From Bacteroidaceae bacterium (GTDB taxonomy: Bacteria > Bacteroidota > Bacteroidia > Bacteroidales > Bacteroidaceae), in the NCBI GenBank assembly GCA_017461605.1, contig JAFTXN010000008.1, positions 1 to 38,906 of the forward strand: a DNA stretch of 38,906 bases, in the 5' to 3' direction. The position numbers and the translations under genes were made by a program. A model generated the notes under the pieces. The model worked only from the letters and a program-made list of their open reading frames with translations. It had not been told where the DNA came from and searched no databases. Each line of letters starts with the position of its first letter. Within the stretch, counting starts at the first letter, position 1. Shown here one piece after another: positions 13,438 to 38,519 of the stretch.

Positions 13438-13482
13438 AAAGTTTATGAATTGTTCTTGTTTAGTTTCCAGCGTCCAAGCATC

Positions 13483-13906
13483 CCGGATGGGGCTGCTCCC
13501 CTATAGGGGAGCTCCCGGAACGGGTGAGGGGTATGAACGAACGGCGGAGTTCTTTCAACAGATTAAACGAGGAAACGGCCTGAAGGGCCGGCAAGCTCTC
13601 AGCTCGGGGCAGCGCCCCGAGTATATGCAAGACGATGAACGCGCCCTACAAGGGCAAAAGCAGTATTCTCGAGGTGGTTGACATAGGCTTTTTTCCCTGC
13701 AGGGCGCATGGTGAATCTGCGTTTCGTTCTTAGGGTGTTGCCCTAAACTGAGAGCTTCTTCCCCTTTCAGGGGATTTTTCGGGTGGGTACGGAAATCCCG
13801 AGCCAATGTTCATGAGGGTGTTCCGTTTGTTCATGAGCGTATACCGTCTGCTCATACCCCCTCCGCTTCGCTCGTCCCCCTACCTTAGGGGGACAGCCCC
13901 GTCCGG
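13483..13906 (-). mobile_element. Composite palindromic repeat, copy B
   Basis: 424-bp element in reverse orientation relative to copies A and C. It is bounded by CCGG at both ends, with imperfect terminal inverted repeats (CCGGATGGGGCTG... and ...CAGCCCCGTCCGG). Inside are two inverted modules, each a chain of hairpins: CTCGGGGCAGCGCCCCGAG in one and TTAGGGTGTTGCCCTAA in the other, plus CCCTGCAGGG and GGCCTGAAGGGCC. No open frame suggests a transposase. The remainder of this gap, 13907-14063, has a small hairpin (AGCCCCTTTCGGAGGGCT) and nothing else I recognise. Confidence 0.75.
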
Positions 13907-14063
13907 ATGGATTTGTCAATGGGGGCCAGAAGTGTGCAGCCCCTTTCGGAGGGCTTTCCTCTCAGGCTAGCGGCCGACACTTTAGGGGCTTGTCGAGGCC
14001 TTATGGTTTGCAGTTCAACAGGGGATTGAACTGACAGCCTTGCGCTTTGGTCTTGGCGGATAC

Positions 14064-17659: not shown

Positions 17660-17896
17660 GGTTCGGCAAAAAAAATGAGGAGCGTATATGCTTTTTAGCA
17701 TTTGGCGAGTGAAAAAAACCTTATGGCTCGTTGAATTGTCGAGAGGAGGGGCGCGAGAAACCGGTGTCGATGCCGTGTGATTGTTTTTTTCTTTTTTCTG
17801 CTGTTAAGCATGTTTTCGGGGCCTCTTCCTTGGTTACCAGCGTTCGGACAAGTCGGAAGAGGGGTGCTTTTGTTTGATTTTCAGCATGCGGGCAGG

Positions 17897-18308
17897 CCGG
17901 ATGGCGCTGCTTCCCTAAGGTTGGGGGGACGAGCGAAGCGGAGGGGGTATGAGGAGATAAGAAAGGCTGTTTGTACGTCCTTGGCCGAACTTCCTACCCA
18001 CCCCGAAAACTCCCCTGAAAGGGGAAGAAGCCCTCAGCTTAGGGCAACGCCCTAAGAACGAAACGCATATTCGCCATACGCCCTGCAGGGGCAAAAGCCT
18101 GTGTAAACCACCACGGGAATACAGCTTTTGCCCCTACAGGGCGCATTCATCGTCGTTGCATATACTCGGGGCGCTGCCCCGAGCTGAGAGCTTGCCGGCC
18201 CTTCAGGCCGTTTTCTCTGTTTAATCTGTTTGAATAACTCCGCAGTTCGTTCATACCCCCCCCTCCGCTTCGCTCGTCCCCCTACGTTAGGGGGACAGCC
18301 CCGTCCGG
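17897..18308 (+). mobile_element. Composite palindromic repeat, copy C
   Basis: 412-bp element bounded by CCGG on both sides. The left end runs CCGGATGGCGCTG ... GGACGAGCGAAGCGGAGGGG; the right end is its inverse (CCTCCGCTTCGCTCGTCC ... CAGCCCCGTCCGG), giving terminal inverted repeats of about 50 bp. The two inner modules are diverged inverted copies of each other. Strong hairpins include CTCGGGGCGCTGCCCCGAG (18165-18183) and CTTAGGGCAACGCCCTAAG. It has no transposase-like frame. No obvious target duplication is visible. Confidence 0.75.
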
Positions 18309-35848: not shown

Positions 35849-35856
35849 CTACCACT

Positions 35857-36285
35857 ATGGATAAGTTTGTACCACATACCATCGATGTAGCAGAATCGTA
35901 CGAGAGCCATCTGCTGGGAGATGTGAAAGCCGGATTTCCATCGCCGTCAGAAGATGTACGTGAGAAGTTGGACCTTGTCAAGTTGCTTGTCAGAAACCGG
36001 GCTTCCACTTTCTTCTTCCGTGTAAACGGAGTCTCAATGGTGGATGCAGATATAGACGAGGGTGACATTATTATTGTAGACAGAGCCGTTGCTCCATACA
36101 ACAACTGTAAGGCTGTTTGCTATATCGATGGCGAATACACCGTCAAGCGTGTGGAGATTGGCGATAACAAAGTCCGGTTGATGCCGGCCAATGAGAATAA
36201 CAAGGCCTATAAGCCCATAGAAGTAACGGCGGAGAACGATTTTCTAATTTGGGGCGTCGTTACCTATGTCATCAAGAAGATGTAG
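35857..36285 (+). CDS. umuD: UmuD-type self-cleaving S24 peptidase, DNA polymerase V accessory subunit
   Basis: LexA-fold serine peptidase that cleaves itself on RecA filaments to give UmuD', the partner of UmuC in translesion synthesis. With the ATG at 35857 the catalytic residues are Ser60 (RVNGVSMVDA) and Lys97 (GEYTVKRVE), the same numbers as E. coli UmuD. The cleavage site is Ala25-Gly26 (DVKAGFPSP). 142 aa matches UmuD and there is no DNA-binding domain, so it is not LexA. umuC starts 2 nt after its stop. Confidence 0.93.
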   Translation: MDKFVPHTIDVAESYESHLLGDVKAGFPSPSEDVREKLDLVKLLVRNRASTFFFRVNGVSMVDADIDEGDIIIVDRAVAPYNNCKAVCYIDGEYTVKRVEIGDNKVRLMPANENNKAYKPIEVTAENDFLIWGVVTYVIKKM

Positions 36286-36287
36286 CG

Positions 36288-37553
36288 ATGTTTGCCCTGG
36301 CCGATTGTAACAACTTCTTTGCTTCTTGTGAGCGGGTATTCCGTCCCGACTTGCGAGGGAAACCCGTCATTGTCTTGTCGAACAATGACGGCTGCGCTAT
36401 TGCAAGAAGCAACGAAGCCAAGGCCTTGGGTATAAAGATGGGAGCACCGTTTTTTAAGATAAGAGACATTGTCAGAAGGCATAATGTAGCGGTGTTTTCC
36501 GGAAATATGGCACTCTATGGCGATATGTCGCAACGGGTTCGTTGGGTGTTGGAAGAGTTTGCTCCCGGCATCGAGGTCTATTCCATCGATGAGGCATTCT
36601 TGGATCTCAGGGGGATGAAAAATATAGACTTTGATGCGTATGCGAAGCGTATCTCTGCACAATGTAGGAAGATGACCTCTATCCCGGTTTCGGTAGGCAT
36701 CGCTCCGACCAAGACGCTTGCCAAGATAGCCTCGAAACTCTGCAAGCAATATCCGAAACTGAGAGGCGGTTGCTACATGCATCGCCCGCAGGACATTGAA
36801 AAGGTGTTGCGCAAGTTCCCGATAGAGGAAGTTTGGGGCATTGGGCGTCGCTCTGCTCCGAAGTTGAAAGCGAGGGGTGTCAATACTGCATACGAGTTTA
36901 CGCAATTGCCCGAAGGAGTTGTGCGGATGATGCTTGGCATTGGTGGTGTCAGAACATGGAAAGAACTGCGAGGCATCCCTTGCCTAGAGTTTGAAGACGG
37001 ATTTGAGGCAAAGCAGTCGATATGCGTTTCGCGCAGTTTCTCTTCCGAGATATATGAGGTGAAGGAACTGCAGGAGCAAATTGCTAATTTTGCTTCCGCT
37101 ATGGCAAGTAAGTTGCGCCAGCAGCAGTCGGTAACATCGGAAATGGTGGTTTTCGCCTATACCAATCGTTTCAGGGAGGATGTGCCGCAGATACATGCCA
37201 ACACCCTTGTGTCATTCATCACTCCCACAGCCGAGGAGCGTATCATCATTGCGCAAGCTGTGAGTGCCGCCAAAACCCTGTTTAAGCAAGGCTTTGGATA
37301 TAAGAAAGCGGGAGTGATTGCCACGAAGATAGTTCCCGAGAAGCATGTGATGCACTCGTTGTTTGAAGACCGGGAAGCCGTCGAGCGCGAGCACAAGATA
37401 ACATCAGCCTTGGATGCCATCAATGCTACCTTTGGTAAAGGAACCATCAAATTGGCCGTTCAGGGAAGTGGAGAAATCAAGTCGTCGAGTGAAAATCAAT
37501 CGCCACACTACACGACGCGATGGAGCGATATCCCCCACGTAACAATCAAATAG
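36288..37553 (+). CDS. umuC: Y-family DNA polymerase V catalytic subunit
   Basis: Error-prone translesion polymerase. The metal-binding residues are Asp6 (ALADCNNFF) and Asp101-Glu102 (YSIDEAFLDL), at the same positions as in E. coli UmuC. Also present are VLSNNDGCAIARSNEAKALG, SVGIAPTKTLAKIASKL and the helix-hairpin-helix-like WGIGRRSAPKLKARGV. The C-terminus ends SPHYTTRWSDIP, the usual UmuC tail. 421 aa. It forms a two-gene operon with umuD. The 230 bp after it show no terminator and no gene. Confidence 0.95.
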   Translation: MFALADCNNFFASCERVFRPDLRGKPVIVLSNNDGCAIARSNEAKALGIKMGAPFFKIRDIVRRHNVAVFSGNMALYGDMSQRVRWVLEEFAPGIEVYSIDEAFLDLRGMKNIDFDAYAKRISAQCRKMTSIPVSVGIAPTKTLAKIASKLCKQYPKLRGGCYMHRPQDIEKVLRKFPIEEVWGIGRRSAPKLKARGVNTAYEFTQLPEGVVRMMLGIGGVRTWKELRGIPCLEFEDGFEAKQSICVSRSFSSEIYEVKELQEQIANFASAMASKLRQQQSVTSEMVVFAYTNRFREDVPQIHANTLVSFITPTAEERIIIAQAVSAAKTLFKQGFGYKKAGVIATKIVPEKHVMHSLFEDREAVEREHKITSALDAINATFGKGTIKLAVQGSGEIKSSSENQSPHYTTRWSDIPHVTIK

Positions 37554-37783
37554 CAGAACTTCAGTATTGGTTACGGCCTTGATGAGCAAACTCAAACCAC
37601 ATGCAATAGGTCTGGGTTAATCAACACGATGCAACAGATTTAGCAGAAATTGTGTCATAGGAACACTAATCACACTCTAAGTTTGTTGCGTGTAATCAGT
37701 TGTGATATCCTGCGAATACGAATAAGGCTTTGATAAAGATGTTGTTTTTTTAAAGAATTTTATGTAAGTAAAAATAAGTTTCG

Positions 37784-37791
37784 TACATTTG
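37784..37791 (+). promoter_or_regulatory. -7 box of the structured leader
   Basis: TACATTTG, a perfect TAnnTTTG. The expected start of transcription is about 37797, directly in front of the first leader hairpin. The -33 region is A/T-rich without a clear TTTG. Confidence 0.6.
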
Positions 37792-37796
37792 CGGCA

Positions 37797-38114
37797 AGAC
37801 GGAGAAGTTCCGTTTGCGACATATTGAAATAACGTAGAAGCGTTATGCTAGTCTTGTAACATTGAAACCTAGGAAATTTCAAAGTACATACAAGGGATGG
37901 CATAGTGGTTCTCACGCGTATAGCGTGGGCTGCTACCCCATTTGTGTATGTACGGGTTTTCCTAGGACCTCAATGTTTAGAATGGCACACCAGTCCCACG
38001 CTTTGTGCGTATTATAATAAACATTGTTCTTTGGGGATTGGAGGACGAGAGGGAGCCTAGGGTTAAGACAGGCTTCCAAGTAAGAATAAATCTAATCACA
38101 ATAAACAATAAATT
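37797..38114 (+). ncRNA. Candidate structured 5' leader or small RNA
   Basis: Ordered stems can be drawn. H1 ACGGA/TCCGT (37799-37813). H2 ATAACG/CGTTAT (37829-37846). A long nested domain at 37858-37977: AACATTGA/TCAATGTT, CCTAGGAAA/TTTCCTAGG, GTACATAC/GTATGTAC and a tip CTCACGC/GCGTGGG. H5 GGGAGCCT/AGGCTTCC (38051-38077). Two rival pairings exist: CAATGTTTA (37971-37979) with TAAACATTG (38018-38026, 9 bp), and AGCGTGGG (37922-37929) with CCCACGCT (37995-38002, 8 bp). Each would break a helix of the long domain. The RNA ends 30-40 nt before the ATG of the leucine-rich repeat gene. I do not recognise a known family; 6S-type or Bacteroidales-specific RNAs are alternatives. Confidence 0.55.
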
Positions 38115-38519
38115 ATGGAAAAACTCAGAACTTTCTTATTGGCATTCTTAATGCTGATAGGTTGTGTAACAGTGTCGGCTTATGACGTCGAAGTGGACGG
38201 GATATATTATGACCTAGACTCAACGTCGCATGAGGCGAAAGTAACGTACAAGGCACTTGATGGGAATGTTAATCAGAGCGATTATTCTGGTGATGTTGTA
38301 ATTCCTACAACAATTTCTGTTGAAGGGGTGGCTTATGGTGTTGCTTCTATTGGAGATTATGCGTTCAGAGGTTGCAGTGGTCTGACTTCCATTGCGCTTC
38401 CCGAAGGTGTCACCTCTATTGGAAATTGGGCGTTCAATGGTTGCAGTGGTCTAACTTCCATTGCGCTTCCGGATGGGGTTACTGCTATTGGATACGAAAC
38501 CTTTTCTGATTGTATTTAG
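38115..38519 (+). pseudogene. BspA-type leucine-rich repeat surface protein, truncated
   Basis: 134-aa exported protein. Residues 1-22 are a signal peptide (MEKLRTFLLAFLMLIGCVTV, cut near VSA). A beta region follows (VDGIYYDLDSTS...). Then come 23-residue LRR_5 repeats: one at 38349-38417, a second at 38418-38486 and a third that breaks off after IGYETFSDC. Repeats have the pattern IGxxAFxGCSGLTSIALPxGVTx. Family members usually have many more repeats and often a C-terminal sorting domain; here a stop (TAG at 38517-38519) comes two codons after the repeat pattern is lost. It is most likely truncated by an insertion. A short functional protein is possible. Confidence 0.7.

What the first reader, a model, noticed from the sequence alone, without database searches (positions are those of the whole stretch)
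37797..38114. Highly structured leader with two mutually exclusive pairing sets, upstream of a surface-protein gene
After a perfect -7 box, about 315 nt can fold into a nested domain of four stacked helices (37858-37977). Two of its strands have equally good or better partners downstream: CAATGTTTA with TAAACATTG (9 bp), and AGCGTGGG with CCCACGCT (8 bp). The motifs AACATTG, CCTAGG and CACGC each recur in the second half. A region around ATGGCA...CACGC...GCGT is roughly duplicated (37897-37927 and 37982-38010). This is what a two-state regulatory RNA would look like. The pairings are read directly; the switch function is inferred.
Basis: partly seen in the sequence, partly recalled or inferred. 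Interest (0 to 1): 0.8.

Follow-up and report, generated by a model that had tools for sequence, protein, structure and literature searches.

The report
Portable structured leader RNA of Bacteroidia
In front of a surface-protein gene sits a large, strongly conserved folded RNA leader that recurs across gut and environmental Bacteroidia ahead of many unrelated, mostly exported proteins, has no match in the Rfam library, and looks like an interchangeable control module whose trigger is still unknown.

Summary
In detail: leader 37797-38114 follows a -7 box and folds far better than chance (z -6.85). Neither it nor 11 further loci match an Rfam family. Its RNA family occurs in 34/58 genomes of the genus, 113/393 of the order and 16 genomes of other orders of the class, with up to 20 matches per genome. 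Covariation is decisive: 94.2% of cells paired, 41/46 pairs doubly changed. A kissing hairpin, P9/P10, ends a median 16 nt before the start codon. Downstream genes share no common family but are exported-like (88/110 versus 263/801 neighbours). The module is interchangeable: core portions at least 90% identical precede unrelated genes in 249/267 pairs, and related integrative elements with MobV relaxases change cargo at or near the core's 3' end. The two-state idea is partly supported: AGCGTGGG/CCCACGCT is conserved and each half can fold alone, but it costs about 15 kcal/mol and hardly covaries; the other alternative is not conserved. Signal-responsive translational control is inferred, not shown.

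The parts
37784..37791 (+). -7 promoter box TACATTTG (Bacteroidetes TAnnTTTG type)
   Evidence: TAnnTTTG within 80 nt upstream of the core in 159 of 187 elements, beginning 39-56 nt upstream in 138; within 60 nt in 150 of 208 against 7.7 in shuffled sequence
37797..37815 (+). P0, 5' hairpin at the presumed transcript start
   Evidence: a hairpin clearly better than shuffles in 72 of 81 testable leaders
37818..37823 (+). GACATA box between P0 and the core
   Evidence: 78 of 208 elements against 3.2 in shuffled sequence
37836..38006 (+). RNA core (model R1, P1-P7)
   Evidence: 161 bits, E 1.2e-38, but the window is one of the 14 sequences R1 was built from; structure counts
37837..37843 (+). P1 5' strand (a1), pairs with 37998-38004
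   Evidence: 98.4% of cells paired, 6 of 7 pairs with double changes; no signal in the swap tests (+0.5; -1.7) because it hardly varies
37846..37849 (+). P2 5' strand, pairs with 37984-37987
   Evidence: 94.4% paired, 3 of 4 pairs with double changes; swap z +1.9
37853..37858 (+). P8 5' strand, complementary to 37889-37894; pseudoknot or alternative helix
   Evidence: partner-swap z -4.0 and, with tighter strands, -6.0 against a reversed control of -1.9
37858..37865 (+). P3 5' strand, pairs with 37970-37977
   Evidence: 98.1% paired; swap z -27.3
37868..37876 (+). P4 5' strand CCTAGGAAA, pairs with 37958-37966
   Evidence: 9 of 9 pairs with double changes; swap z -11.1
37884..37892 (+). P5 5' strand, pairs with 37945-37953
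   Evidence: 9 of 9 pairs with double changes; swap z -27.6
37895..37900 (+). P5b 5' strand, pairs with 37938-37943
   Evidence: MFE fold of the window; one weakly covarying column pair (87/160)
37903..37917 (+). b1: P6 5' strand (37903-37908) and P7 5' strand (37911-37917)
   Evidence: swap z -4.4, -5.9
37923..37935 (+). a2: P7 3' strand GCGTGGG and P6 3' strand CTGCTA; GCGTGGGCTG could instead pair with 37991-38001
37990..37997 (+). b2 head CCAGTCCC: 5' strand of the P9 kissing contact with 38033-38041
   Evidence: P9 swap z -4.7, with tighter strands -8.5 against a reversed control of -2.9; covariation counts on a set selected for P9
37998..38004 (+). P1 3' strand
38024..38048 (+). P10 hairpin: 38024-38030 with 38042-38048 in the form that leaves the loop GGGGATTGG (38033-38041) free for P9; the isolated fold extends the stem by three pairs into that loop
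   Evidence: family test z -16.5 against -5.6 (reversed strand) and +0.8 (shifted windows), 137 elements
37756..38045 (+). block shared with the syntenic locus L065 (83.8% identity); homology ends here and the downstream gene differs
38115..38519 (+). downstream gene: 134-aa BspA-type leucine-rich-repeat protein with signal-like N-terminus
   Evidence: PF13306, E 9.8e-17

Best explanation
The feature is one copy of a class-wide structured 5' leader RNA of Bacteroidia. Anatomy (shown by comparison): -7 promoter, 5' hairpin, GACATA, a long rod of seven helices closed by P1, then a hairpin P10 whose loop kisses the CAGUNCC strand inside the rod's base (P9), ending about 16 nt before the start codon. 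It is a self-contained promoter-plus-leader module ahead of exchangeable, mostly exported genes, both in chromosomes and at the head of the cargo region of MobV-type integrative elements. Proposed mechanism (inferred): it acts in cis on translation. In the long-rod state P9 docks P10 next to the start codon and restricts ribosome loading; when P1 opens, a2 can take b2 away from P10 and release it. A common trans-acting signal or protein would thus control a scattered set of surface proteins. The direction (docked = off) is a guess; the ligand is unknown.
For: RNA family: 94.2% of 4703 cells paired, covariation score 0.583 against 0.210 in shuffles and at most 0.108 when slid; the 21 best of all column pairs are 20 pairs of the model plus one directly extending P3 (columns 36/207). 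P9 z -8.5 and P10 z -16.5. Cis-acting: gene on the same strand in 172 of 179 loci where one was called; core-to-start distance median 51 nt, 44-60 nt in 110 of 171; P10-to-start median 16 nt over 119 elements; two elements in series ahead of one gene in two genomes. Common role: up to 20 matches per genome; exported-like products in 88 of 110 downstream genes against 263 of 801 others (odds 8.2, p 3e-21). RNA rather than DNA: many G-U cells (columns 42/199, 28 of 105; 97/149, 70).
Against: No expression, probing or ligand data. No common downstream family (at most 4 of the 121 scanned), so no metabolic hint at a ligand. P9 is weaker than -5 kcal/mol in 41 of 206 elements, and by eye it is missing in the tandem leader. 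In the window P10 lies about 66 nt from the start codon, an outlier. The reversed-strand controls of P9 and P10 are themselves below zero (-2.9; -5.6). The alternative fold costs a median 14.7 kcal/mol and its central helix hardly covaries.
Confidence: 0.55

Rival explanations
1. Constitutive module: promoter plus stable leader that protects the mRNA and presents an open start site, a ready-made expression signal for mobile and accessory genes; nothing is sensed.
For: Unrelated downstream genes; the leader heads the cargo region of integrative elements; the usual 16-nt gap between P10 and the start codon would suit positioning.
Against: A plain stabiliser does not need near-invariant strands and several covarying long-range contacts; strong bias to exported products is not explained.
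Confidence: 0.25
2. Recombination element: the conserved strands a1 and b2 serve mainly as junctions at which cores and cargo genes are exchanged, by homologous recombination or by a site-specific enzyme, as in a gene-cassette system.
For: Core portion at least 90% identical in 267 pairs among 199 elements (97 involved), gene side unrelated in 249, neither flank related in 217. In 29 pairs picked for core portions at least 94% identical and unrelated flanks, identity is 0.53-0.73 over the 60 nt upstream, 0.40 falling to 0.25 beyond, and 0.36 right after the core. Of 12 pairs with related upstream DNA that part company near the core, 9 do so -3 to +9 nt from the core end. Helices that bridge the junction (P1, P2, a2-b2) hardly vary, helices on one side (P3-P5; P9-P10) vary.
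Against: The other 3 of the 12 pairs part at -33, -35 and +65 nt, the 15 pairs shown were hand-picked and share elements, and in the window the block ends at P10. Covariation with many G-U pairs and the distance to the start codon speak for RNA function; exchange can follow from ordinary recombination in conserved stretches plus selection for pairing; no recombinase is tied to the element.
Confidence: 0.12
3. Trans-acting RNA with read-through: the leader is processed or terminates and works elsewhere, like the paralogous sRNAs of Bacteroides.
For: Multicopy, canonical promoter, strong fold.
Against: The one terminator-like site in the window stretch 37700-38300 lies inside the core (37925-37941) without a real T run; none lies between core and gene. 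Spacing to the start codon is narrow. [quoted passage not shown]
Confidence: 0.06

Closest known systems
Multi-gene riboswitches such as the c-di-GMP class (GEMM), recalled
   Same: Compact conserved leader, many copies per genome, unrelated genes, occasional tandem arrangement, also in mobile elements
   Different: No Rfam match; GGDEF domains were found in 0 of 12 genomes that carry the RNA, so c-di-GMP is an unlikely ligand there
Bacteroidetes RNA motifs of Weinberg et al. 2010 (6S-Flavo, Bacteroidales-1, Bacteroides-1, Flavo-1; PMC2864571, passages read)
   Same: Structured RNAs of the same phylum
   Different: No match of these Rfam models to the window leader at E up to 5 or to 11 further loci, divergent ones included, at E up to 1
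FopS / GibS sRNA family of Bacteroides (PMC11697453, passages read)
   Same: Multicopy RNA of gut Bacteroidales with canonical promoter; its authors suggest spread by phages
   Different: Short sRNA with seed and Rho-independent terminator, intergenic, antisense or 3' UTR; ours is a rod-shaped 5' leader
Integron attI/attC gene cassettes (recalled)
   Same: Structured element, promoter upstream, interchangeable gene downstream
   Different: An integron integrase was not sought; covariation with G-U pairs and start-codon spacing point to RNA

Membership tests
Riboswitch | Conserved RNA fold supported by compensatory changes | tested here: met
   41 of 46 pairs with double changes
Riboswitch | Located in the 5' leader of the controlled gene | tested here: met
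   position by sequence only; no transcript data
Riboswitch | Expression platform coupled to the fold | tested here: inconclusive
   P9/P10 kissing hairpin a median 16 nt before the start codon; its effect is not shown, and it is weak or missing in part of the elements
Riboswitch | Downstream genes share a pathway that fits a ligand | tested here: not met
   no Pfam family above 4 of 121 proteins scanned, of 155 called; only an export bias
Riboswitch | Binds a small ligand without protein | not testable with these tools
   needs in-line probing
c-di-GMP riboswitch | Matches the Rfam model and host makes c-di-GMP | tested here: not met
Flavo-1, Bacteroidales-1, 6S-Flavo and other Rfam 15 families | Covariance-model match | tested here: not met
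   in the leader nothing above gathering, only a chance SNORD42 at E 3.7; nothing in 12 sources at E up to 1
FopS/GibS sRNAs | Single-stranded seed region followed by a terminator hairpin | tested here: not met
   architecture differs; the R1 seed was not searched for and transcript ends are unknown
Integron gene cassette site | Recombinase-dependent exchange at a defined crossover point | not tested
   exchange is seen; no enzyme or precise crossover was established

The most novel reading that the evidence does not exclude
The element is a plug-and-play leader: a fixed 'socket' (promoter, a1, P3-P7) and an exchangeable 'plug' (b2, P10 and the gene) that fit together because the bridging strands are nearly invariant. 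It would be both a folded RNA controlling translation of exported proteins and the junction of a gene-cassette-like exchange system in Bacteroidia, with the folded strand as the recognised site.
Probability: 0.15. Interest if true: 0.95.

Novelty: new variant of a known kind. Interest (0 to 1): 0.8.

Why it matters
A large structured RNA with up to 20 matches per genome, present from gut Bacteroides and Prevotella to other orders of the class, has no match in Rfam 15. If it is a switch, one signal would control many surface and exported proteins of dominant gut bacteria, including the cargo of transferable elements (for example a beta-lactamase gene on plasmid pBUN1). The modular exchange also offers a direct view of how mobile elements acquire and express new surface genes. 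The question 'what does it sense?' is now testable with a defined fold and a long list of natural variants.

Tried and rejected
Rejected: the pair CAATGTTTA/TAAACATTG as a conserved alternative. A c-di-GMP sensor (GGDEF in 0 of 12 genomes). c-di-AMP seems not to be required either: the cyclase domain is in 11 of 12, missing from G778, which has one match. A GNRA tetraloop as a general feature of the 5' hairpin: 12 of 102 loops, though against 1.6 in shuffles. A tiny upstream reading frame at the ATG in a1: read by eye in the Prevotella-type elements, absent from the divergent group shown. A metabolic theme among downstream genes. State B as the favoured fold. P1 and P2 give no signal in the partner-swap test. 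Papers: in the listings, and in passages of PMC7366714, PMC2864571, PMC9723704, PMC8040213, PMC10994844 and PMC11697453, I saw no description of this element; no paper was read whole. Supplements could not be opened, so one of the 3161 candidates of PMC8040213 may be this RNA.

Selections and a mended error: A4 holds 105 elements; swap tests used 98 after dropping those over 93% identical; one search used 83. A9 was chosen for P9 energy below -6 and spacing, and 94 of the 112 so chosen were aligned, so one search is biased; one search is not. Pfam scans had 121 of 155 called downstream proteins and 99 of 135 upstream ones. The 216 elements held 8 weak matches to the opposite strand; one search dropped them and gives the numbers used here (before: P10 z -16.2; pairs 269, 250, 218; export 88 of 111). 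Searches were not redone; only one such row had a P9 partner. One search counted 143 pairs with homologous upstream proteins and 1 with homologous downstream ones, but some loci lacked a called downstream protein (L193 and L247 share theirs); with both proteins present it is 94 pairs from 27 loci, 1 also downstream. By DNA, 12 of 151 pairs with homologous upstream sequence also share the gene side. In the large searches only 48 or 7 candidates per genome were scored, so copies are lower bounds; one match of G098 is the opposite strand of another. Gene calls are from a simple longest-frame caller; export was scored by a hydrophobicity and lipobox rule, not by a trained predictor. In one search L336, L338, L340 and L342 seem to have been printed on the wrong strand; they are not used for structure counts.

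Full report
Check of the observation. The strings, the -7 box and the pairings are in the sequence at the stated places. The leader folds at -108.8 kcal/mol, z -6.85, with 0 of 100 shuffles as good, and it holds more long complementary words than shuffles. Rfam gives nothing for it: the only window hit at gathering level is a tRNA, and in 37560-38300 at E up to 5 only a chance SNORD42 match at E 3.7.

The family. A DNA search found 26 places in 13 of 61 genomes, among them a second copy in the window's own genome. From 14 of these I built a covariance model, R1. It finds 34 of 58 genomes of the genus, 113 of 393 of the order and, in the phylum sample, 19 of 395 genomes, of which 16 belong to other orders of the same class. 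In a deeper search of 12 genomes that carry it, matches per genome range from 1 to 20; the window's genome has 6. An exact pattern scan of named genomes stopped at its limit with 119 stretches; by my reading of the titles the 80 listed are Bacteroidales (Bacteroides, Phocaeicola, Parabacteroides, Prevotella, Alistipes, Barnesiella, Muribaculaceae and others) except one contig labelled Clostridia. There are 11 viral contigs, 7 records of the plasmid collection (one of 1.77 Mb) and 2 phage records. Rfam again finds nothing in 12 sources, divergent ones included, at E up to 1.

Structure. On 105 aligned elements 94.2% of 4703 cells pair, 41 of 46 pairs show changes on both sides, and the covariation score is 0.583 against 0.210 in shuffles and at most 0.108 after sliding (the alignment was made with the model, which favours it). 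Without using the structure, the 21 best of all column pairs are 20 pairs of P2-P5 of the model plus one pair that extends P3. A partner-swap test, in which each strand is paired with the strand of a near relative, gives z -27.3, -11.1 and -27.6 for P3, P4 and P5, -4.4 for P6/P7 and nothing for the hardly varying P1 and P2; unrelated strands used as controls range from +2.1 to -2.7. A stricter form gives -5.9 for P6/P7. Two contacts beyond the nested fold appear. P9 joins CAGUNCC in the base of the rod with GGNACUG downstream (z -4.7; -8.5, reversed control -2.9). Its downstream strand is the loop of a new hairpin, P10, whose own stem covaries (z -16.5 over 137 elements that have a P9 partner; controls -5.6 and +0.8). 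P10 ends a median 16 nt before the start codon in 119 elements. A third contact, P8, has z -4.0, or -6.0 against -1.9 with tighter strands; it may be a pseudoknot or part of another state.

Leader anatomy. A TAnnTTTG box lies within 80 nt upstream of the core in 159 of 187 elements, in 138 of them beginning 39-56 nt before it; the start codon follows the core by a median 51 nt, 44-60 nt in 110 of 171. A 5' hairpin is present in 72 of 81 testable leaders and GACATA in 78 of 208 against 3.2 expected. The next gene is on the same strand in 172 of 179 loci with a called gene. In two related genomes two whole elements stand in series before one gene. No terminator-like site lies between the core and the gene in the window.

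Two states. P1 and P2, and the alternative a2-b2, hardly vary, so covariation says little: a2-b2 pairs in 97.9% of cells, with a covariation score that 96 of 500 shuffles reach. The swap test gives -2.3 or, stricter, -4.2 against -1.5. Folding halves alone is more telling: the 5' half has mean z -2.43, changing to +0.32 without its first strand, and the 3' half -4.19, changing to -0.92 without a2. Both halves can therefore close on themselves, as a domain-swapped or cotranscriptional state would. The cost is a median 14.7 kcal/mol. The pair CAATGTTTA/TAAACATTG is not conserved.

Genes. No downstream Pfam family exceeds 4 of the 121 proteins scanned (of 155 called); upstream, the MobV relaxase domain is the commonest (11 of 99 scanned, of 135; the next reach 2). 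Yet exported-like N-termini mark 88 of 110 downstream products against 263 of 801 other genes of the same loci (p 3e-21). On plasmid pBUN1 the element stands between mobV and blaMUN-1; on a Parabacteroides plasmid it precedes a DUF4433 gene.

Exchange. The window and locus L065 share 88.7% identity through the polymerase gene upstream, then the leader 37756-38045 at 83.8%, then nothing: the downstream genes differ. Of 94 element pairs with homologous upstream proteins and both genes called (27 loci), 1 also has homologous downstream proteins; by DNA it is 12 of 151 pairs. Five integrative elements with homologous MobV proteins are 92-96% identical over 4.4-5.2 kb in the five comparisons shown and part at the core end, -3 to +9 nt; over all 12 shown pairs that part, 9 fall in that range and the others at -33, -35 and +65; two further pairs keep the same gene and one runs off a contig. 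For L174 and L179 homology resumes after the cargo at 98%. Among 199 elements, 267 pairs (97 elements) share the core portion at 90% or more; the gene side is unrelated in 249 and neither flank is related in 217. In 29 non-redundant pairs chosen for core portions at least 94% identical and unrelated flanks, identity is 0.53-0.73 over the 60 nt upstream (conserved promoter region), 0.40 falling to 0.25 beyond, and 0.36 right after the core. Helices whose strands lie on the same side of this junction vary freely; those that bridge it do not. I read this as modular exchange; whether by ordinary recombination plus selection for pairing, or by a dedicated enzyme, is open.

Mechanism. Shown: a conserved RNA fold, placed as a 5' leader, with a kissing hairpin beside the start codon. 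Inferred: transcription of this leader, translational control, one shared signal, the direction of control. c-di-GMP is unlikely. The likeliest rival is a constitutive expression module. Novelty: no Rfam match, and no description in the listings and passages seen; unread papers and supplements remain a gap.

Noticed in passing
window 38115-38519: The BspA-type gene is only 134 aa and ends inside a repeat; DNA homology to the syntenic locus L065 stops at 38045, so this gene was probably brought in and is cut short.
   Followed up: partly
window 35854-37553: S24-peptidase and Y-family polymerase genes (umuDC-like) directly upstream of the leader; the same stretch precedes the leader in L065.
   Followed up: partly
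L374:256-632 and L375:4001-4373: Two complete RNA elements about 50 nt apart ahead of a single gene, in two related genomes: a tandem leader.
   Followed up: partly
L323:6001-7126 (plasmid pBUN1, B. uniformis): Element between mobV and the class A beta-lactamase gene blaMUN-1.
   Followed up: partly
L322:6001-7461 (P. distasonis plasmid): Element just before a DUF4433 gene (DarT-like toxin family, recalled).
   Followed up: no
L078, L226, L235, L313, about 1.6-5 kb after the core: After the cargo comes a conserved hairpin (terminator-like) and a stretch resembling a tRNA gene end, probably the right end of the integrative element (by eye).
   Followed up: no
window 13464-13562, 13848-13924, 17875-17962, 18259-18306, 153-251: Several stretches match the spacer between polymerase gene and leader in L065 (4615-4868) at 76-92%: a dispersed intergenic repeat.
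   Followed up: no
L101:5085-5160, L385:4900-4990 and similar: A divergent subgroup carries a conserved GCCTATGAAGCATA stretch in the 5' part of the leader.
   Followed up: no
L226:4650-4809, L062:5213-5384 and others: The opposite strand also scores weakly (25-39 bits) with the model, as expected of a long rod; no antisense transcript was looked for.
   Followed up: no
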